A stretch of DNA of 64,000 nucleotides, taken from Brucella grignonensis. GTDB lineage: Bacteria > Pseudomonadota > Alphaproteobacteria > Rhizobiales > Rhizobiaceae. A model generated the notes under the pieces. It searched no databases and was not told where the DNA came from. It worked only from the letters and a program-made list of their open reading frames with translations. The DNA lies in NCBI RefSeq assembly GCF_002252505.1, contig NZ_NNRL01000157.1, positions 186,001 to 250,000 on the forward strand, given 5' to 3'. The translations under genes were made by a program, and so were the position numbers. Each line of letters starts with the position of its first letter. Position 1 is the stretch's first letter. Below are positions 13,125 to 64,000 of this stretch, one piece after another.

Positions 13125-13379
13125 GCGGTGATGCAAAAGAGCCAATTGGCCAGTCACAGCCGGGTCAAAATTGGCGCTTTCGTGGCATTTTCATGAAATG
13201 TGAACAAATTTTTACAGTTAAAAATTTCAAAGACTTAGCTGGTAAACAAAAGGTTTTTTTCGCTGTCACCGCTTATTGCAGTACGAAATGTTCTTTCGTT
13301 TGATCCAATTTGCGCTTAGATTCCGGTTCTCTACCAGCGCGCGCCCGGCCTCGTCGGGTGCATATAAGGAGACAGACCA

Positions 13380-13466
13380 ATGGGACTTACGCGATCTTTG
13401 AATGTCCTCATGATCTGTGCAGCATTCGCATTTGTTGCAGCGTTGATAGCAGGCGTTATTCCCTGA
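13380..13466 (+). CDS. 28-residue single-span membrane protein
   Basis: ATG at 13380 is preceded by AAGGAGA about 7 nt upstream. The product starts MGLTRSLNVLMICAAFAFVA and ends in a proline; it is one hydrophobic helix (about residues 8-27) with a single positive residue before it, so the N-terminus should stay inside. It has its own terminator (13545-13572) and a ~250-bp upstream region, so it looks like an independent unit. Family and function are unknown. The strong ribosome site and one clean helix argue for translation. Confidence 0.7.
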   Translation: MGLTRSLNVLMICAAFAFVAALIAGVIP

Positions 13467-17048: not shown

Positions 17049-18698
17049 TTAGCGCGTCAGCGGCTTGTAGGTTACCCGCTTCGGATTGACGCTTTCAGGT
17101 CCAAGACGGCGGACCTTGTCAGCTTCGTAATCCTCGAAGTTGCCTTCGAACCATTCAACATGGCTATCGCCTTCGAATGCCAGAATATGCGTTGCCAGAC
17201 GGTCGAGGAACATACGATCGTGGGAGATGATAACAGCGCAGCCAGCATACTTTTCAAGCGCATCTTCGAGCGCTGCCAGCGTTTCGGTATCAAGATCGTT
17301 GGTCGGTTCGTCGAGGAGCAGAACGTTGCCGCCTGCCTGCAGCATCTTAGCAAGATGCACGCGGTTACGCTGACCACCGGACAGATTGCCGACTTTCGCC
17401 TGCTGATCGCCGCCCTTGAAGTTGAACGCACCGCAATAAGCGCGGGAGTTCATTTCAAACTTGCCAAGCTTGATAATGTCATTACCGCCAGAAATTTCTT
17501 CCCAGACATTCTTGTTCGGATCCAGGTGATCGCGGCTCTGATCAACGTAACCAAGATGAACCGTGTCACCGATACGGATCGAACCGGAATCCGGCTTTTC
17601 CTGACCGGTAATCATCTTGAACAGTGTCGACTTACCGGCACCGTTCGGACCGATAACACCGACAATACCACCTGGAGGCAGCTTGAATGTCAGATTTTCG
17701 ATCAGCATACGGTCGCCAAACGACTTGGTCAGACCTTCAGCTTCAATAACCACCTGACCGAGGCGCTCACCAGCAGGGATCAGAATCTGGGCATCGCCCG
17801 GACGCTGATTGTTGGCGGCTTCAACGAGCTGATCATAGGCCTTGATACGGGCCTTCGACTTAGACTGACGTGCTTTCGGGCTTGCGGCAATCCATTGGCG
17901 TTCACGTTCAAGCGCCTTCTGGCGCGAATCTTCTTCGCGGCCTTCTTGAATCATGCGCTTGGATTTGGCTTCCAGATAGGCAGAATAGTTGCCTTCATAA
18001 GGAATGCCACGACCACGATCGAGTTCAAGAATCCAGCCCGTCACATTGTCAAGGAAGTAGCGATCGTGCGTGATAAGCAGGACAGCGCCTTCATATTCGC
18101 GTAGATGCTTTTCCAGCCATGCGGTGGTTTCAGCGTCAAGGTGGTTGGTCGGCTCGTCAAGCAGAAGCAGGTCAGGCTTCGAAAGCAGCAGCTTACAAAG
18201 CGCCACACGACGACGTTCACCACCCGAAAGCGTTGTGACATCGGCGTCAGCAGGCGGGCAGCGCAGGGCTTCCATCGCCATTTCGACCTGGCTGTCCAGA
18301 TCCCAGAGGTTCTGGCTGTCGATGAGATCCTGAAGCGCCGCACCTTCGTCGGCTGTTTCATCAGAATAATTCATCATCAGCTCGTTATAACGGTCGAGAA
18401 TAGCCGTTTTCTTGGCTACACCTTCCATTACATTGCCGAGCACGGTCTTTTCAGGGTCGAGATGCGGTTCCTGTGCAAGGTAACCACAAGTCGCACCGTC
18501 TGCGAGCCAGGCTTCACCGGTGAAGTCCTTGTCGAGACCGGCCATGATCTTGAGAATTGTCGATTTACCGGCGCCGTTTGGTCCGAGAATACCAATCTTC
18601 GCATCTGGATAGAATGACAGATGAAGATTTTCGATAACCTTCTTGGCGCCGTAGGCCTTATTCAGCCCGGACATATGATAGATGAATTGGCGTGCCAT
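17049..18698 (-). CDS. ettA: Energy-dependent translational throttle protein, ABC-F family
   Basis: 549 residues, soluble ABC-F ATPase that binds the ribosomal E site and gates entry into elongation according to ATP/ADP. Two ATP-binding cassettes: Walker [10 protein letters not shown] in each, signatures [11 protein letters not shown] and [11 protein letters not shown], Walker [13 protein letters not shown] and [11 protein letters not shown]. Between them is the P-site tRNA interaction linker ([20 protein letters not shown]). Start at 18698 ([17 protein letters not shown]) by family length; the frame is open 68 codons further but those are not conserved-looking. Confidence 0.96.
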
Positions 18699-19188
18699 AA
18701 AGCGCGTCGTCTCCACAGGTTGGAAAGCGCGGTTCGACCTGATGTCGAAGCGCGGGAAATTGCTGCTGGCTATGTAGGCGAAATAGCGCGCGGAAGCAAA
18801 CATCATCGCACGGATTACACCGATCACTCTCATTGCGAGAGCGAAGCACTGATTTTTCTGTGTCCCAAAATAAATGAAACCGGGCGCGGATATTTCCGTC
18901 ACCCGGTTTCCCCTCTGGCCACCACTCGGGAAAGTATCCTCCCTTTCACCGAATGGCCTGCTAGTTATGCCTTAAAGACTGGAATTCGACGCCCCTGAAT
19001 TCTCTTCAAAACTCCGTTCATATCCCCTGATAAAGACAGATTTGCCCAGGATTTTGTGGTTTTCAAGCGGAATTTGCTCAAAAAATACAAATGCCTAAAA
19101 TTAATTCATTCAACCTCCTGGTGCCTTTTTTAAAGACGCGACCAAAAGAGAATTTGACTATTTGCGCGGCATAAATTCTGATGGTCTT
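18699..19188. other. Divergent intergenic region, no gene seen
   Basis: 490 bp between ettA and the hydrolase gene. It holds an inverted repeat (GAAACCGGG at about 18876 with CCCGGTTTC at 18902) that could act as a terminator or regulatory hairpin. The right half is AT-rich. No reading frame looks coding. Confidence 0.5.
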
Positions 19189-56852: not shown

Positions 56853-58079
<1,227 letters not shown>

Positions 58080-58102
58080 ACAGCTCAGACATTGAATGAC
58101 GA

Positions 58103-58124
58103 AGGGGCCGAAAGGCCCCTTTTT
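58103..58124 (+). terminator. Terminator after aspartate aminotransferase gene
   Basis: AGGGGCC-GAAA-GGCCCCT hairpin with GNRA loop and TTTTT tail. Confidence 0.92.
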
Positions 58125-58167: not shown

Positions 58168-58284
58168 CAAAAAAAAAGCCAGACAAATGTCTGGCTTTGA
58201 GTTTTGAAGGTGCCTTTGAGGCAAACCTCCAGAGGGGAACACTCAGCCTGCGCAAATGGGAGGAGGAAACGCAGCGCTGAGATG
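58168..58284 (-). ncRNA. Candidate small RNA with CCTCCTCCC loop (alpha-r14/cuckoo-like)
   Basis: Minus strand. Promoter TTGCAA (58313-58318) and CATATA (58290-58295) with a 17-bp spacer. Transcript from ~58284: stem CTCAGCGCTGCG / CGCAGGCTGAG (58270-58281 with 58242-58252) enclosing a 17-nt loop that contains CCTCCTCCC (58258-58266), an anti-Shine-Dalgarno motif. A middle section CCCCTCTGGAGGTTTGCC follows, then a perfect terminator AGCCAGAC-ATTT-GTCTGGCT with nine T (58169-58177). Length ~117 nt. Same layout as the alpha-r14/cuckoo sRNAs of Rhizobiales, which bind ribosome sites of mRNAs. The interval 58080-58661 otherwise holds only the Pho array. Confidence 0.72.
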
Positions 58285-58521
58285 ATCCTTATATGCCTCG
58301 TGCTCATTGTTTTTGCAATGCAACTTTATAGCAATACAGCTATGCGTTTTATGCATAGCTCGAAAATCAGAAAAACACTAATAATTTCAACCCACTAAAC
58401 ATATTTCACTGAACCAAAATTCTATATCAGCGATATAAAAACAGCCTAAACCGCAGGCAAACGCAAGCTCGCCTTGCCTGTAAAAACAGCAAATCACTTC
58501 CTTCTGCAACATTCATGGGGG

Positions 58522-58661: not shown

Positions 58662-59507
58662 TTGCGGATCGTTCAGATTACAGATACCCACCTCAGCCCT
58701 ATCAAGCCGCACTTCAATCGCAACTGGGAGCCGCTGGTTGCCTGGATCGATCAGCAAAAGCCCGATCTCGTCATTCACACCGGTGACCTGACCGTCGATG
58801 GCGCAGACGTAGAGGCTGACCTTCTGTTCTGCCGCACCTGCCTGAACGAGCTTCCGGCGCGTGTTCTCAGTCTTCCGGGCAATCACGATATCGGCCATCT
58901 TCCCGAGAGCCACCAGCCGGTCAATCCGCAGCGCCTGATGCGCTGGCGTCGTCATATCGGTCCGGACCGCTGGGCGGAAAATTTCGGCAACTGGCGCATC
59001 ATCGGCCTCAACAGTCTCGTCATCGGCTCCGGTGAAGCCGAAGAAGCAGAACAGTTCCAGTGGCTCGAAGACGAATTGAAGAACAGCGATGGCAAGCCCG
59101 TCGCCGTCTTCGCCCACAAGCCGCTCTTCGTGGACGATCCGGATGAAGGCGACAGCGGCTACTGGGGCATTCGCCCTGCCCCGCGCCAACGTCTTTATGA
59201 TCTCTTCGCTCAGTATAACGTGCAGCTTCATGCCAGCGGCCACCTGCACCGGGCCTGGTCGGGCGCCGCCTTCGGCACGAACTATATCTGGGCGCCTGCC
59301 GCTGCCTTCATCGTTGGGCCAATGGAACGCGATCTCCCTGGCGAGCGCATTCTCGGGGCCGCCATTCACGATCTCGATGAAGTCGCCACAAGCAGCATCG
59401 TCCGCATCGATGAGCTAACGCCCTATGTCATCGATGACGTGGTGCATGAAGTCTATCCGCACCATGCTGGTGACGGCGAGAAAGTCGCTGAGGAGGCAAG
59501 CCAGTGA
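58662..59507 (+). CDS. Metallophosphoesterase (phosphodiesterase) of an ABC-importer operon
   Basis: 281 residues. All calcineurin-like motifs: D-x-H in QITDTHLSP, GD in HTGDLTVDG, GNHD in LPGNHDIGHL, H in VFAHKPLF, and GHLH in HASGHLHRAW. No signal peptide, so it works in the cytoplasm on an imported substrate or on membrane lipids. Closest in form to GpdQ-type glycerophosphodiesterases; PlcP-like phospholipase C is an alternative. TTG start at 58662 with AAGGAG 7 nt upstream. It overlaps the ABC ATPase gene by 4 bp (GTGA) and heads a five-gene operon. Confidence 0.88.
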   Translation: MRIVQITDTHLSPIKPHFNRNWEPLVAWIDQQKPDLVIHTGDLTVDGADVEADLLFCRTCLNELPARVLSLPGNHDIGHLPESHQPVNPQRLMRWRRHIGPDRWAENFGNWRIIGLNSLVIGSGEAEEAEQFQWLEDELKNSDGKPVAVFAHKPLFVDDPDEGDSGYWGIRPAPRQRLYDLFAQYNVQLHASGHLHRAWSGAAFGTNYIWAPAAAFIVGPMERDLPGERILGAAIHDLDEVATSSIVRIDELTPYVIDDVVHEVYPHHAGDGEKVAEEASQ

Positions 59508-60682
59508 GCACGCTCGTCCTTCGCGACATCGGCAAATCCTACGGGGGCAATCGTATTCTCGATGGCATTTCCATCGAAGCAGCAGAAGGCGAATTCATAG
59601 CCCTCGTTGGCCCGTCGGGCTGCGGCAAGAGCACATTGCTGCGTATTCTGGCCGGTCTCGACCATGCGGACGAAGGAAGCGTGGAGTTGGCAGGACGTAA
59701 CATAACGGGCGCTCACCCTGCCGACCGCAACATCGCCATGGTGTTCCAGTCCTACGCGCTCTATCCCCACCTGACGACAGCGCAGAACATCGCGGTGCCG
59801 CTTGCAATGCGTGATCTGACCGCCGTGGAACGCCTGCCAATGATCGGCACTTTCGTTCCCGGCCAGCGCAGGAAGCGCGCCGCCATCCAGAAGCAGGTCA
59901 GGGCAACCGCAACAAGCCTCAAGATCGACCATCTGCTCGACCGCAAGCCGGGCCAGATGTCCGGCGGCCAGCGCCAGCGCGTGGCCCTTGCCCGCGCGCT
60001 CGTCCGCCAGCCCGGTGCATTCCTGATGGATGAACCACTGTCGAACCTCGATGCCAATCTGCGTGTTCACACCCGTGCGGAAATCGTCGAATTGCATCGC
60101 CGCGCCGGTGTCCCGACTATCTATGTGACCCACGATCAGGCCGAAGCGCTCAGCATGGCCGACCGTGTTGCAGTGATGATGGGCGGTAAACTGCTGCAGA
60201 TCGACACGCCAACCGCAATCTATAACGATCCGCGCCATATCGAGGTCGCACAGTTCATCGGCACGCCGCGCATCAATATTCTGGAAGCATTGGTCAGCGA
60301 TAACGGCATGGTGCATTTTGCCGGTCGCCCCATCCTGCAGGGCGTCGCCGCCCATTCCGGTACCAATATCCGCATCGGCATTCGTCCTGAGCATTTTCAG
60401 CTCAAGCCGCATGACAAGACAGGCATTGCGGGCACGGTATCGCGGATCGAATTTCTCGGTTCGGAAGTACTGGTCTATCTCAAGGCTCCCGGCGCCTCAC
60501 AAGATCTCACTGTGAAGCTCACACCCGAACAAGCCCGTGACATTGTCGTCGGCCTGCCGGTGGGCCTGCATTTCGATGCCAGCCACGCCCACCTCTTCGG
60601 AGAAGATGGTTTGCGCCTGCGCCAGCCCGCCGGGAACATCGTCAAACCTGCATCGCCGGCAAAGGCTGCCGCTCATGTCTGA
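59504..60682 (+). CDS. ABC importer ATP-binding protein, UgpC/MalK type
   Basis: 392 residues. Walker A LVGPSGCGKST, Q-loop MVFQSYALYPHLT, signature MSGGQRQRVALARAL, Walker B FLMDEPLSNLDA, H-loop YVTHDQAEA, and a C-terminal TOBE-type regulatory domain (GIRPEHFQL). A ~25-residue insertion after the Q-loop region (IGTFVPGQRRKRAAIQKQ) is unusual. GTG start at 59504 with GAGGAGG upstream. Powers the two permeases that follow; MalK-like subunits couple to sugar, polyol or glycerol-3-phosphate importers. Confidence 0.95.
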   Translation: MSTLVLRDIGKSYGGNRILDGISIEAAEGEFIALVGPSGCGKSTLLRILAGLDHADEGSVELAGRNITGAHPADRNIAMVFQSYALYPHLTTAQNIAVPLAMRDLTAVERLPMIGTFVPGQRRKRAAIQKQVRATATSLKIDHLLDRKPGQMSGGQRQRVALARALVRQPGAFLMDEPLSNLDANLRVHTRAEIVELHRRAGVPTIYVTHDQAEALSMADRVAVMMGGKLLQIDTPTAIYNDPRHIEVAQFIGTPRINILEALVSDNGMVHFAGRPILQGVAAHSGTNIRIGIRPEHFQLKPHDKTGIAGTVSRIEFLGSEVLVYLKAPGASQDLTVKLTPEQARDIVVGLPVGLHFDASHAHLFGEDGLRLRQPAGNIVKPASPAKAAAHV

Positions 60683-61607
60683 TTTTACGCTATCCGGCCC
60701 TGTGGCCACCAGCGCACGCACGGCGGCTGATGAAGCCCGCCGCCGCGAAGAACGTCTTGCGTGGAAACTCGCCTCCCCGGCGATTTTTCTGACTGTACTC
60801 CTCATCCTGCTGCCAACCGCTGCTGTGATCTTCTGGAGCCTGACCAATTTCGAGCTTGGCTATGACGGTTTCGAATTCATCGGGCTGGAAAACTATGCCG
60901 AACTCTTCAGCGACCGAACGTTTCTGGTCTCGCTGAAGAACACCGCCATCTATACCGCGATCGTGGCACCGGCCTCCGTCTTTCTCGGCCTCGGCGTGGC
61001 CCTCCTCATCGAAGGTGAAGTTCGCGGCAAATCCTTCTTCCGCACGGTCTATTTCCTGCCGGTCGCTTCGCTCCTCGTCGCCATGGCAACTGTCTGGCAA
61101 TATCTGCTGCATCCTACACTCGGCCCCGTCAACACCATGCTGGGCATGATCGGCATTGCCGGTCCTAATTGGCTTGGTTCCAGTGACACGGTTCTGACCA
61201 GCCTTGCGATGATCGGCGTATGGCAGAGCGTCGGCTTCAACATGGTGCTGTTTCTAGCCGGGCTCACCGCCATTCCGCGAGAGCTCTATTCGGCTGCCGA
61301 AGTGGACGGCGTGAAAAGCAGCTGGGAACGCTTCCGGCTGGTCACGTGGCCCCTGCTCGGACCCACCACGCTTTTCGTCACGACGATCAGCATCATCAAT
61401 GCCGTGAAGGTGTTTGAGACGGTCAAGACGCTGACCGAAGGCGGCCCGAACAAGGCATCGGAAGTCCTGCTCTGGACCATCTATCAGGAAGGCTTCGTCT
61501 ATCTGCGGGTCGGCTATGCCTCAGCAATGACGGTGATCTTTCTCGCGGTTCTCGTGATCCTGATGATGTTGCAGTTCCGCGTGCTGGACCGTCGCACCCA
61601 TTACTGA
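60675..61607 (+). CDS. ABC sugar-type permease (MalF/UgpA-like)
   Basis: 310 residues, six membrane helices, preceded by a ~35-residue charged N-terminus. The EAA loop is ELYSAAEVDGVKSSWERFRL. The ATG at 60675 overlaps the ATPase gene by 8 bp. The frame extends 46 codons upstream but only inside the ATPase gene. Forms the transmembrane channel with the next gene product. Confidence 0.94.
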   Translation: MSDFTLSGPVATSARTAADEARRREERLAWKLASPAIFLTVLLILLPTAAVIFWSLTNFELGYDGFEFIGLENYAELFSDRTFLVSLKNTAIYTAIVAPASVFLGLGVALLIEGEVRGKSFFRTVYFLPVASLLVAMATVWQYLLHPTLGPVNTMLGMIGIAGPNWLGSSDTVLTSLAMIGVWQSVGFNMVLFLAGLTAIPRELYSAAEVDGVKSSWERFRLVTWPLLGPTTLFVTTISIINAVKVFETVKTLTEGGPNKASEVLLWTIYQEGFVYLRVGYASAMTVIFLAVLVILMMLQFRVLDRRTHY

Positions 61608-61617
61608 GGAAACCCGG

Positions 61618-62439
61618 ATGACATTGGCTCGTTCTTTCCGTCTTGGCATTCTTTCACTGGGTGCCCTGCTTTTTCTCGCGCCCTATATCTTCATGCTGTC
61701 GACGGCAGCAAAATCGCAGCAGGATATTTTCTCGTCCTCCCTGTCGCTGATCCCGCACAACTGGGCACTCCTGGATAATCTTGCCAAGGCATTCAGCCGT
61801 GTGCCGATGGGGCTTTTGCTGTTCAACGGCATAGTCGTCTGCGCGCTCATTCTGGTCATTCAGGTCGTGATCGCCATTCCCTGCGCCTATGCCATGGCAA
61901 AGCTCAATTTCCGCGGCCAGCGTACTATGATGATGATGGTCATGCTCGGCCTGCTCGTGCCGATCCATGCCACCGCATTGCCCTTCTACGTAGGTTTCAA
62001 TCAGCTCGGCGTGCTCAACAGCTATTTTGCTCTCAGTGCTCCGTTCTTCATCTCGGTCTTCGGCATATTCCTGTTTCTGCAATTCTTCCGCGCCATGCCG
62101 GATGATCTCATCAGCGCCGCGCGTCTCGACGGCATGTCAGAGGCAGGCATCGTCATGCGGGTGATCGTACCCAATGCCTGGCCCGCCATCACCGCCTTCT
62201 CGATCTTCTCGGTAGTTGCGCACTGGAACGATCTGTTCTGGCCGCTGATCGTTATCAACGGCATGGAGCGCGCCACGCCGCCATTGGGTCTCCTCTATTT
62301 CCGCGCTGCGGAAGCAGGCGACGATTACGGGGCATTGATGGCGGCAACCCTCATCATCACGCTGCCGCTGCTGCTTGCGTTTCTTGCCGCCCAACGCCGC
62401 TTCATCGAAGGCATCACCCTCACCGGCCTCAAGGGCTGA
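61618..62439 (+). CDS. ABC sugar-type permease (MalG/UgpE-like)
   Basis: 273 residues with six membrane helices. EAA loop: LISAARLDGMSEAGIVMRVI followed by VPNAWPAI. N-terminal SLGALLFLAPYIFMLSTAAK and C-terminal LLAFLAAQRRFIEGITLTGLKG-type end are typical of the CUT1 family. Starts 10 bp after the first permease gene. Confidence 0.94.
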   Translation: MTLARSFRLGILSLGALLFLAPYIFMLSTAAKSQQDIFSSSLSLIPHNWALLDNLAKAFSRVPMGLLLFNGIVVCALILVIQVVIAIPCAYAMAKLNFRGQRTMMMMVMLGLLVPIHATALPFYVGFNQLGVLNSYFALSAPFFISVFGIFLFLQFFRAMPDDLISAARLDGMSEAGIVMRVIVPNAWPAITAFSIFSVVAHWNDLFWPLIVINGMERATPPLGLLYFRAAEAGDDYGALMAATLIITLPLLLAFLAAQRRFIEGITLTGLKG

Positions 62440-62473
62440 ATTCTTCCCTCCCATCCTCCACAGGAGTTCAAAC

Positions 62474-63739
62474 ATGAAACGCTTTTCCAGTGCACTCGCC
62501 GCTCTGGCTATGGCAACAGGCCTCGGCTCGCCCGCCTTTGCCGAAACGACGCTGAACGTGCACTATCCGATGCCAGGCTTTTTCAAGGATGTCATGGCTG
62601 ACATCTCTGGAAAGTTCATGGCAGAAAATCCGGATATCAAGATCAACTTCGTCAGCCCCTCGGCAACCTACGAAGAAGGCATTCAGACGATCATGCGTCA
62701 GGCCGGAACGTCGGAAATGCCGGATATCACCTTCACCGGTTTGAACCGCCTGCGCGTCCTCGCGGAACGCAATATCGGCGTCGACATGAAGCCGCTGGTC
62801 GAAAAAGAAACCGACATGGAAGCACAAGGCTTCACTGATCATCTGTTGAGCCTCGCCCGTGTCGGCGACCGTCAGGTTGGTCTTGCTTTCGCGACCTCCA
62901 ACCCAATCATGTATTACAATGCCGATCTTCTGAAGGCTGCAGGCGGCAATCCCGACACGCCTCCAACCACCTGGGATGCAGTGATCGAGCTCGGCGGCAA
63001 GATCAAGGCGCTTGGCAACGGCAATGAAGGCATTGATTTCCGCTGGCAGGGCGATGACTGGATGTTCTCGGCGCTTCTGTTCGGCGCAGGCGGCACCATG
63101 CTGACCGAAGACGAGAAGAAGGTCGCCTTCGATGGACCGGAAGGGCTCGAAGCCTTCAAGCTGGTCGACCGCATGGTGAAGGAAGGCGGCATGCCGGTTC
63201 TGACCAAGGCAGCGGGTGAGCAGGCTTTCGCTGCTGGCAAGGTCGGCTTCTCGTTCCAGACGACTGGCGCGCTGCGCAACACGATCAAGAATGTCGGCGA
63301 CAAATTCGATCTGCGCACTGCCAAAATCCCTCTTATCAATGCTGAAAAGGGTCGCCTGCCAACCGGTGGCAACGCAGTCGTCATCCTGACAGAAGATCAG
63401 GCAAAGCAGGATGCGGCATGGAAATTCGCCAAGTTCGCCGCTGGACCTTACGGCGCTTCCGTCGTCGTTCCCGGCACCGGCTATGTGCCGAACAACGAAC
63501 TGGCTGCAAAGTCCGACGATTATCTCGGCAAATTCTACGCGGAAAATCCGCTGTTCAAAGCCGGTCTCAGCCAGATGTCGCTGATGATCCCGTGGTATGC
63601 CTTCCCGGGTTCGAACGGCGTGAAGGTGACGCAGACCATCGTGGACAATCTTTCGCGCGTCGTTGAGCAATCCGCCACGCCGGAAGACGCCCTTGCCGAT
63701 GCCTCCAAGGAAGTCCAGCGCCTGCTGCCACGCAAGTAA
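62474..63739 (+). CDS. Periplasmic solute-binding protein, UgpB/CUT1 type
   Basis: 421 residues. Signal peptide MKRFSSALAALAMATGLGSP cut at AFA-ETT. Family marks: LNVHYPMPGFFKDVMADISG, FVSPSATYEEGIQTIMRQAG, NPIMYYNADLLKAAGGNPDT, PPTTWDAVIELGGKI and VGFSFQTTGALRNTIK. CAGGAG precedes the ATG. Ligand unknown; overall it resembles glycerol-3-phosphate/glycerophosphodiester and sugar binders. The Pho array and the phosphodiesterase upstream point to an organophosphate ligand. A strong terminator follows. Confidence 0.93.
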   Translation: MKRFSSALAALAMATGLGSPAFAETTLNVHYPMPGFFKDVMADISGKFMAENPDIKINFVSPSATYEEGIQTIMRQAGTSEMPDITFTGLNRLRVLAERNIGVDMKPLVEKETDMEAQGFTDHLLSLARVGDRQVGLAFATSNPIMYYNADLLKAAGGNPDTPPTTWDAVIELGGKIKALGNGNEGIDFRWQGDDWMFSALLFGAGGTMLTEDEKKVAFDGPEGLEAFKLVDRMVKEGGMPVLTKAAGEQAFAAGKVGFSFQTTGALRNTIKNVGDKFDLRTAKIPLINAEKGRLPTGGNAVVILTEDQAKQDAAWKFAKFAAGPYGASVVVPGTGYVPNNELAAKSDDYLGKFYAENPLFKAGLSQMSLMIPWYAFPGSNGVKVTQTIVDNLSRVVEQSATPEDALADASKEVQRLLPRK

Positions 63740-63814: not shown

Positions 63815-64000
63815 TCAATAAGTCCAGTTGCGGGCCTTCGAGAACAGGAAGTCACGGAAGGCATGCAGTTTCGCGGAGTTCTTCAAGGCTTCCGGATAGC
63901 AGAAGAAAGTATCGAAGGACGGTATTTCTTCCAGTTCCGGCAGAAGTTGCACCAGACCGGATTCCTTGTCGGCCATATAATCGGGCAGAACGGCGATGCC
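63815..64000 (-). CDS. LysR-family regulator, C-terminal end
   Basis: Last 61 codons only; the gene enters from the right edge. The end of the effector domain reads GIAVLPDYMADKESGLVQLL, then SFDTFFCYPEALKNSAKLHA and FRDFLFSKARNW. The FDTxFxYPE...FRDFL pattern is like the LsrB/VtlR group of rhizobial and Brucella LysR regulators, which control envelope and sRNA genes. The DNA-binding part is outside the window, so the subgroup is tentative. Confidence 0.85.
   Translation of the reverse strand, partial: GIAVLPDYMADKESGLVQLLPELEEIPSFDTFFCYPEALKNSAKLHAFRDFLFSKARNWTY

What the first reader, a model, noticed from the sequence alone, without database searches (positions are those of the whole stretch)
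58168..58318. Unannotated small RNA with a CCTCCTCCC anti-Shine-Dalgarno loop
On the minus strand a 17-bp-spaced promoter, a long stem with CCTCCTCCC displayed in the loop, and a perfect terminator with nine T make a complete ~117-nt transcription unit. The design matches alpha-r14/cuckoo sRNAs of Rhizobiales, which target ribosome binding sites. It lies beside a Pho-controlled transport operon whose mRNAs have GGAG-type ribosome sites. A plus-strand frame here would otherwise invite a false protein call.
Basis: partly seen in the sequence, partly recalled or inferred. Interest (0 to 1): 0.75.

Follow-up and report, generated by a model that had tools for sequence, protein, structure and literature searches.

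The report
AbcR2 small RNA beside its activator
This is the already known bacterial small RNA AbcR2, which shuts down nutrient-uptake genes by covering their ribosome-binding sites; the new hint is that it may also shut down the gene for the protein that switches it on.

Summary
In detail: a ~115-nt minus-strand unit (58283-58169) with promoter-like boxes, a CCTCCTCCC loop and a nine-T terminator. It is alpha-r15 = AbcR (RF02345, 76.2 bits, cut-off 40), not alpha-r14 (24.5, cut-off 58.8). 33 of 34 same-genus relatives hold two or more copies. The neighbour that explains it, vtlR (LysR regulator), crosses the window end at 63815-64720(-), followed by trxB. That order matches Brucella abcR2, published as VtlR-activated (PMC5461406, PMC12595884, passages). 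A VtlR box lies at -62 to -50 in 31 of 34 genomes and in 0 of 30 promoters of the gcvP-type paralogue, which has an RpoH1-like promoter in 30 of 30. The sRNA is thus already known. Two readings are unproven: the vtlR ribosome site pairs strongly with AbcR's second seed (31 of 32 genus sites at or below -13 kcal/mol; 5 of 295 sites of other genes), so AbcR may repress its own activator; and RpoH may drive the paralogue. The adjacent transport operon shows no full seed site.

The parts
58169..58283 (-). AbcR2 (alpha-r15) small RNA gene, about 115 nt
   Evidence: RF02345 76.2 bits, E 8.7e-14; conserved in 34 genus genomes aligned; start and end inferred from sequence, not mapped
58242..58281 (-). 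stem-loop 1, carries the first seed in its loop
   Evidence: fold; 5 of 12 pairs with both-side changes over 48 sequences, 93.5% of cells paired
58257..58266 (-). aSD1 / M1 seed CCUCCUCCCA
   Evidence: contains published M1 CUCCCA and aSD1 CUCCUCCC (PMC5461406, PMC8844928, passages); UCCCA in 49 of 49 distinct genus sRNAs and 97 of 109 distinct ones overall
58231..58240 (-). aSD2 / M2 seed GUUCCCCUCU between hairpins 1 and 2
   Evidence: contains published M2 GUUCCC and aSD2 UUCCCCUC; best AbcR window against vtlR start sites
58205..58231 (-). stem-loop 2
   Evidence: fold; 11 pairs, 94.1% of cells paired, no pair changed on both sides
58169..58198 (-). intrinsic terminator hairpin with nine T
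   Evidence: sequence
58290..58318 (-). promoter boxes TTGCAA-N17-CATATA
   Evidence: sequence; TTGCNN-N17-CATA[ACT] in 33 of 34 genus genomes; not listed by the consensus scan
58333..58345 (-). VtlR/LsrB box GCATAGCTGTATT at -62 to -50
   Evidence: matches GCAT-N3-TG-N3-T; 31 of 34 genus genomes perfect, 0 of 30 gcvP-type paralogues, 0.6% of shuffles
58342..58356 (-). dyad ATGC-N7-GCAT overlapping the VtlR box
   Evidence: 33 of 34 vtlR-linked, 0 of 30 gcvP-type copies
63815..64000 (-). 3' part of vtlR (LysR regulator, 301 aa); the gene continues to 64720 outside the window, and its start region there pairs with aSD2
   Evidence: start-site duplex -16.9 kcal/mol
56877..58079 (+). aminotransferase gene, probably aspartate aminotransferase (aat), conserved left neighbour
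   Evidence: PF00155 E 1.2e-90; best NCBIfam model aspartate transaminase, 576.7 bits but below its cut-off of 617; synteny
58662..63739 (+). phosphoesterase plus Ugp-like ABC transporter operon lying between abcR2 and vtlR; variable within the genus

Best explanation
The segment is the gene for AbcR2, one of two alpha-r15 (AbcR) trans-acting small RNAs of this genome. VtlR, encoded about 5.5 kb away beyond a variable operon, binds the box at -62 to -50 and activates a sigma-70-type promoter. The ~115-nt RNA exposes two C/U-rich seeds (CCUCCUCCC in loop 1 and GUUCCCCUCU between hairpins 1 and 2), which pair with ribosome-binding regions of many uptake and metabolism mRNAs, blocking translation and promoting decay. 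Shown here: family membership, two copies, structure and seed conservation, presence of the VtlR box, vtlR synteny. Taken from papers on relatives: Hfq dependence, VtlR/LsrB activation, target repression. Inferred only: that all this happens in this strain.
For: RF02345 76.2 bits vs gathering 40; second copy in the same genome at 65.3 bits; two or more copies in 33 of 34 same-genus relatives; structure z -6.1 with compensatory changes in stem 1; UCCCA of seed 1 in 49 of 49 distinct genus sequences; conservation peak over transcript and promoter; VtlR box in 31 of 34 genomes vs 0 of 30 for the paralogue; among non-genus loci the copy nearest vtlR has the perfect box in 28 of 43 and six of seven positions in the other 15; aat-abcR-vtlR-trxB order. 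Papers: PMC5461406, PMC12595884, PMC7486931, PMC7143759, PMC9751625 (passages seen); section 5 of PMC8844928 read whole.
Against: No RNA data from this strain. The consensus promoter scan did not list the promoter. The ABC-transporter target class could not be recovered: solute-binding proteins follow 10 of 42 full seed-1 sites against 5 of 23 and 3 of 25 in controls, Fisher p 1.0 and 0.34. In one search one of the 12 stem-1 pairs is broken in 33 of 48 sequences, and the measure 'further pair types' is reached by 50 of 500 shuffles. A review table gives AbcR1 as 116 nt and AbcR2 as 110 nt (PMC9751625), whereas here the vtlR-linked copy is about 115 and the other about 109 nt, so sizes and names do not match cleanly; I name by synteny.
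Confidence: 0.93

Rival explanations
1. It is an alpha-r14 / cuckoo sRNA (NfeR1 type).
For: Shares the CCUCCUCCC loop; the ar14 model gives a weak hit, 24.5 bits.
Against: Below ar14's cut-off of 58.8 bits; only one loop carries the motif, whereas ar14 members carry it in all loops (PMC7143759 passage); the ar15 model passes its cut-off over its full length.
Confidence: 0.02
2. Only a convergent terminator pair between aat and the next operon; no independent RNA.
For: A plus-strand terminator follows aat at 58101-58122, facing the minus-strand one.
Against: The conserved block spans promoter and 115 nt, not just the terminator; compensatory changes in stem 1; a paralogue with the same body and a different promoter elsewhere; relatives' AbcR RNAs were seen on Northern blots (PMC9751625, PMC5461406 passages).
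Confidence: 0.02
3. A plus-strand small protein (62 aa 58092-58280, or 64 aa 58204-58398) is the real gene.
For: Open frames exist; a hypothetical gene is annotated antisense to abcR2 in B. melitensis (PMC12595884 passage).
Against: Conservation follows RNA pairing and seeds and falls off at the RNA ends; both frames run into poorly conserved sequence. Protein-level conservation itself was not tested.
Confidence: 0.01
4. Alternative to the feedback idea: the vtlR start-site match to aSD2 is only a G-rich Shine-Dalgarno kept for translation.
For: Agrobacterium, Neorhizobium, Martelella and Paramesorhizobium have abcR beside vtlR but no strong match; Aureimonas L105 has a match (-13.7) although its genome has no ar15 hit over the cut-off; part of the site is predicted paired; one of 82 other ORFs in held pieces of this genome is as strong.
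Against: 5 of 295 start sites of ten other neighbouring genes reach -13 kcal/mol (3 of 198 for the five with confident starts) against 34 of 56 vtlR rows; permuting aSD2 reaches the real median in 1 of 300; aSD2 is the strongest part of AbcR against vtlR.
Confidence: 0.5

Closest known systems
AbcR2 of Brucella abortus / B. melitensis (alpha-r15, Rfam RF02345)
   Same: Gene order trxB-vtlR-abcR2, antisense open frame, M1 CUCCCA and M2 GUUCCC seeds, VtlR box upstream.
   Different: Here a phosphoesterase + Ugp-like operon lies between abcR2 and vtlR; published sizes of AbcR1/AbcR2 do not match the copies cleanly.
AbcR1 of Sinorhizobium meliloti and Agrobacterium
   Same: LsrB/VtlR-activated, box at -61 to -49 (S. 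meliloti), aSD1 CUCCUCCC and aSD2 UUCCCCUC, next to lsrB/vtlR.
   Different: There AbcR1 and AbcR2 are in tandem beside lsrB/vtlR; here the paralogue lies on another contig beside gcvP. Names are crossed between genera.
NfeR1 / alpha-r14 / cuckoo RNAs
   Same: CCUCCUCCC anti-Shine-Dalgarno loop; NfeR1 is LsrB-activated in S. meliloti (PMC10746234 passages).
   Different: Motif in every loop; separate Rfam family whose cut-off is not met here.

Membership tests
alpha-r15 / AbcR (RF02345) | covariance-model score above the curated cut-off | tested here: met
   76.2 bits vs 40
alpha-r15 / AbcR (RF02345) | three stem-loops, the last an intrinsic terminator | tested here: met
alpha-r15 / AbcR (RF02345) | two seeds, M1 CUCCCA in loop 1 and M2 GUUCCC between hairpins 1 and 2 | tested here: met
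   sequence against PMC5461406 passages
alpha-r15 / AbcR (RF02345) | several copies per genome | tested here: met
   2 copies over the cut-off in this genome; two or more in 33 of 34 same-genus relatives
alpha-r15 / AbcR (RF02345) | Hfq binding and stabilisation | not testable with these tools
   needs RNA-protein data
alpha-r15 / AbcR (RF02345) | represses ABC-transporter mRNAs through the seeds | tested here: inconclusive
   solute-binding genes after full seed-1 sites 10 of 42, controls 5 of 23 and 3 of 25
Brucella abcR2 (VtlR-controlled copy) | near vtlR/trxB, VtlR box upstream | tested here: met
alpha-r14 / NfeR1 / cuckoo | ar14 model score above 58.8 bits | tested here: not met
   24.5 bits
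alpha-r14 / NfeR1 / cuckoo | anti-SD motif in all hairpin loops | tested here: not met
   only loop 1 carries it

The most novel reading that the evidence does not exclude
AbcR and VtlR form a negative feedback loop: VtlR activates abcR2, and AbcR pairs through its second seed with the vtlR ribosome-binding site and represses VtlR synthesis. The pairing is kept in this genus and in Mesorhizobium, present in part of Rhizobium, Hoeflea and others, and missing in Agrobacterium, Neorhizobium, Martelella and several more. Since both AbcR copies carry the second seed, the RpoH1-like promoter of the gcvP-type copy would let stress signals lower VtlR too.
Probability: 0.45. Interest if true: 0.6.

Novelty: already known. 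Interest (0 to 1): 0.38.

Why it matters
The sRNA itself is known, so correct naming prevents a false new-family claim and a false protein call. Its surroundings give two testable predictions for a well-studied system that links transport control to host association: a feedback loop between AbcR and its activator, and a heat-shock-type sigma factor for the paralogue whose regulator a 2022 review lists as unknown in Brucella (PMC9751625, passage seen).

Tried and rejected
Alpha-r14/cuckoo membership: rejected by score. Adjacent operon as target: no full seed-complementary ATG site there; duplexes -3.6 to -12.8 (seed 1) and -2.4 to -8.3 (seed 2) at its five starts (in that call one start was mislabelled 60666, redone at ATG 60675 with the same values).

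Enrichment of solute-binding proteins behind seed-1 sites: TGGGAGGA-N3..12-ATG occurs 52 times against 80 for the other three first bases together and 42 for [ACT]AGGAGGA (backward-read controls 2, 10 and 13), a hint of preference for T, but the downstream genes are not enriched in solute-binding proteins (10 of 42; 5 of 23; 3 of 25; Fisher p 1.0 and 0.34). Rows dropped: of the 52 seed-1 rows 42 frames of at least 60 aa were kept (7 too short, 3 repeats); the first control had loci for 30 of 80 sites (23 frames kept), the second for 35 of 42 (25 kept).

RNAalifold on the 76-sequence mixed alignment found only hairpin 2 and part of the terminator, not stem 1; stem 1 was therefore tested on 48 sequences (47 of the genus plus Paramesorhizobium), with a structure taken from one of them, which favours it somewhat. 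The 76 rows are my choice out of 111 distinct sRNAs: nearly all distal copies of other genera and Martelella were left out. Hence UCCCA 'invariant in 76' is not general: over all, 97 of 109 distinct sequences have it; the 12 without are distal copies and both Martelella copies. Outside the genus the sequences were collected by the core TTCC..CTCTGGAGG, so conservation of that core there is by construction; two third copies (L013, L065) and L054 of another genus lack it.

In one search loci L028 and L055 fell into the wrong class by my rule and were moved by eye; L118 contributes only its distal copy and is left out of the 43. Of the 34 gcvP-type copies 30 were fetched. They are called gcvP-type by sequence; the gcvP neighbour was checked only in this genome. 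In one search the own genome counts twice among the 56 vtlR rows, and the starts of five of the ten control genes are uncertain. The output ran over because of negative indices at locus ends; repeated in clean form.

Full report
What was claimed.

Observation. On the minus strand the sequence reads TTGCAA (58318-58313), 17 nt, CATATA (58295-58290), then a likely start at 58283, a long stem with CCTCCTCCC in the loop (58266-58258), a short second hairpin and a terminator with nine T ending at 58169. The RNA folds at -46.8 kcal/mol, z -6.1, none of 200 shuffles as stable. The terminator was found by the pattern scan; the promoter was not, but its boxes recur in 33 of 34 genus genomes.

Identity. 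A scan of the whole window with Rfam gives RF02345 (ar15) at 58170-58283(-), 76.2 bits, cut-off 40, E 8.7e-14. ar14 scores 24.5 with a cut-off of 58.8. alpha-r15 is the AbcR family (PMC3712013, PMC7143759, passages seen). The published seeds M1 CUCCCA and M2 GUUCCC (PMC5461406, passages) and aSD1 CUCCUCCC and aSD2 UUCCCCUC (PMC8844928, passages) are both present, in the stated places.

Copies and conservation. This genome has one further copy over the cut-off (65.3 bits), on another contig beside gcvP. Of 34 same-genus relatives 33 have two or more copies, six of them three; the one without is 72% complete. Over 34 genomes (own plus those 33) the transcribed region is 92-100% identical per 10-nt bin, the promoter region from about -80 is also conserved (79-96%), and bins beyond are 43-82%. 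UCCCA of seed 1 is in 49 of 49 distinct genus sequences and in 97 of 109 over all genera; the full CCTCCTCCC is in 43 of 49 genus sequences. On 48 sequences stem 1 has five pairs changed on both sides; both helices pair in 93.8% of cells against 32-50% in slid controls; covariation score 0.154 against 0.088 in shuffles, 0 of 500 as high; but one stem-1 pair is broken in 33 of 48 sequences and the number of pair types is reached by 50 of 500 shuffles.

Neighbourhood. Left is an aminotransferase gene (aat), right a calcineurin-like phosphoesterase and a Ugp-like ABC operon (all Ugp models below their curated cut-offs). Across the window end lies a 301-aa LysR protein, window 63815-64720(-), then trxB. 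Its length, its HTH at residues 7-66 and its place next to trxB equal those given for B. melitensis VtlR, where abcR2 lies antisense to the second hypothetical gene downstream (PMC12595884, passage). In B. abortus abcR2 on chromosome I, not abcR1 on chromosome II, is VtlR-controlled (PMC5461406, PMC7486931, passages). By synteny the window gene is abcR2 in Brucella naming. It corresponds to AbcR1 of S. meliloti, and the literature crosses these names (PMC7143759 and PMC8844928 passages call the VtlR-controlled Brucella copy abcR1). The review table's sizes (AbcR1 116, AbcR2 110 nt; PMC9751625) do not fit the synteny and remain unexplained.

Regulatory input. GCAT-N3-TG-N3-T, the VtlR/LsrB box (PMC7486931 passage; PMC8844928 section 5 read whole, where it lies at -61 to -49), is present at -62 to -50 here. 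Of 36 vtlR-linked rows (34 genomes plus two named loci of the genus) 33 match at all seven positions and 3 at six; 0 of 30 gcvP-type copies match; shuffles 0.6%. Outside the genus the copy nearest vtlR matches fully in 28 of 43 and at six positions in 15 of 43. The gcvP-type copy has TTGAA-N16-N[CA]CATAT at a nearly fixed place in 30 of 30 (30 of 34 such copies were fetched), 0 of 34 in the other type, 0 of 1500 in base shuffles. This resembles CTTGAA-N16-CCTATAT, the RpoH1 promoter of S. meliloti PabcR2. That paper aligned homologues from several alphaproteobacteria in a supplement that I could not see, so the idea may be partly in print; for Brucella the review calls the regulator of abcR1 unknown (PMC9751625 passage), and a search for abcR1, RpoH and Brucella listed three papers: PMC8844928, PMC7143759 and PMC3747064, the last not opened.

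Targets. No full seed-1 or seed-2 ATG site lies in the adjacent operon; the only seed-2 pattern match inside the window is the opposite strand of the sRNA gene itself. Its five starts pair at -3.6 to -12.8 and -2.4 to -8.3 kcal/mol. Genome-wide, 10 of 42 genes behind full seed-1 sites are solute-binding proteins against 5 of 23 and 3 of 25 in controls, not significant. The known ABC-transporter regulon is therefore not recovered by this simple test.

A lead on feedback. While checking neighbours I found that the vtlR start region (GAGAGGGGGAGAAG-GTG) pairs with seed 2 at -16.9 kcal/mol. Across 56 vtlR/lsrB rows (own genome counted twice) the median is -14.1 and 34 are at or below -13; for ten other genes of the same neighbourhoods 5 of 295 are, or 3 of 198 for the five genes with confident starts. 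With better start assignment and more genomes: 31 of 32 in the genus (30 loci returned of 34 genomes with vtlR, plus two held earlier), 31 of 62 outside. By label, for 59 of the 62: Mesorhizobium 11 of 11, Rhizobium 10 of 14, Hoeflea 3 of 4, Ensifer 1 of 3, Aureimonas 1 of 4, Ciceribacter 1 of 1, Aquamicrobium 1 of 1, unnamed Rhizobiales or Hyphomicrobiales 3 of 5; none in Agrobacterium (2), Neorhizobium (2), Xaviernesmea (2), Martelella (2), Pseudochrobactrum (2), Allorhizobium (1), Aquibium (1), Chelativorans (1), Paramesorhizobium (1), Bartonella (1) and a record labelled Bacillus (1). The match is not confined to abcR holders: Aureimonas L105 has it at -13.7 though its genome has no ar15 hit over the cut-off. 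Of 300 permutations of the seed one is as strong, and it keeps a UUCCCCUCU core; the best of all 12-nt windows of AbcR covers seed 2. Against 82 ORFs in held parts of this genome, each scored at its best candidate start, one equals or exceeds vtlR and six reach -13; the strongest is an ABC ATPase frame at 17049-18902. The site is only partly unpaired in a local fold. A search for AbcR with vtlR and feedback found no paper; lsrB with AbcR1 and feedback loop found only the NfeR1-NtrBC paper (passages); the four vtlR/lsrB mRNA and transcript phrases gave four papers, of which only PMC7486931 concerns VtlR, and its one passage is about VtlR's regulon. This covers an open-licence library only. I rate the feedback loop at 0.45 until tested.

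Verdict. The feature is real, conserved and already known as AbcR2. The family guess was one family off, and the suggested local target is not supported. The parts that I did not find in print are the predicted AbcR-vtlR feedback and the RpoH-like promoter of the paralogue across this genus.

Noticed in passing
L002 (another contig of this genome), upstream of the gcvP-linked AbcR copy: RpoH1-like promoter TTGAA-N16-N[CA]CATAT in 30 of 30 genus copies fetched; predicts a heat-shock sigma factor as the unknown input of Brucella abcR1.
   Followed up: yes
window 58662-63739: The region between abcR2 and vtlR varies within the genus: vtlR directly adjacent, a gap of about 1.3 kb with a phosphoesterase, or phosphoesterase plus Ugp-like operon (gap sizes read from coordinates).
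   Followed up: partly
L007, L008, L009, L010, L013, L065: Third AbcR-like copies in six genus genomes; four score above the vtlR-linked copy on the ar15 model (up to 95 bits). L008 with flanks matches 357 plasmid records over about half of the query, 266 called conjugative. AbcR-type sRNAs seem common on rhizobial plasmids.
   Followed up: partly
window 13357-13448 (+): Rfam Atu_C9 sRNA match, 52.2 bits vs cut-off 40, although only 92 bases align to a 192-position model; the stretch holds an ATG frame after AAGGAG, so it may be a small protein gene.
   Followed up: no
   Followed up: no
window 17049-18902 (-): ABC ATPase frame (two ABC_tran domains and ABC_tran_Xtn) whose first candidate start pairs with AbcR seed 2 at -18.4 kcal/mol, the strongest of 82 ORFs; possible AbcR target.
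   Followed up: no
L106: Record titled Bacillus subtilis SK6B4 carries aat and vtlR like Pseudochrobactrum (86% identity to the queries, similar to L086), so the assembly is probably mislabelled.
   Followed up: no
own genome: T before GGGAGGA at start sites is about twice as common as each other base on average (52 vs 80 for the three others together), perhaps related to pairing with AbcR seed 1.
   Followed up: partly
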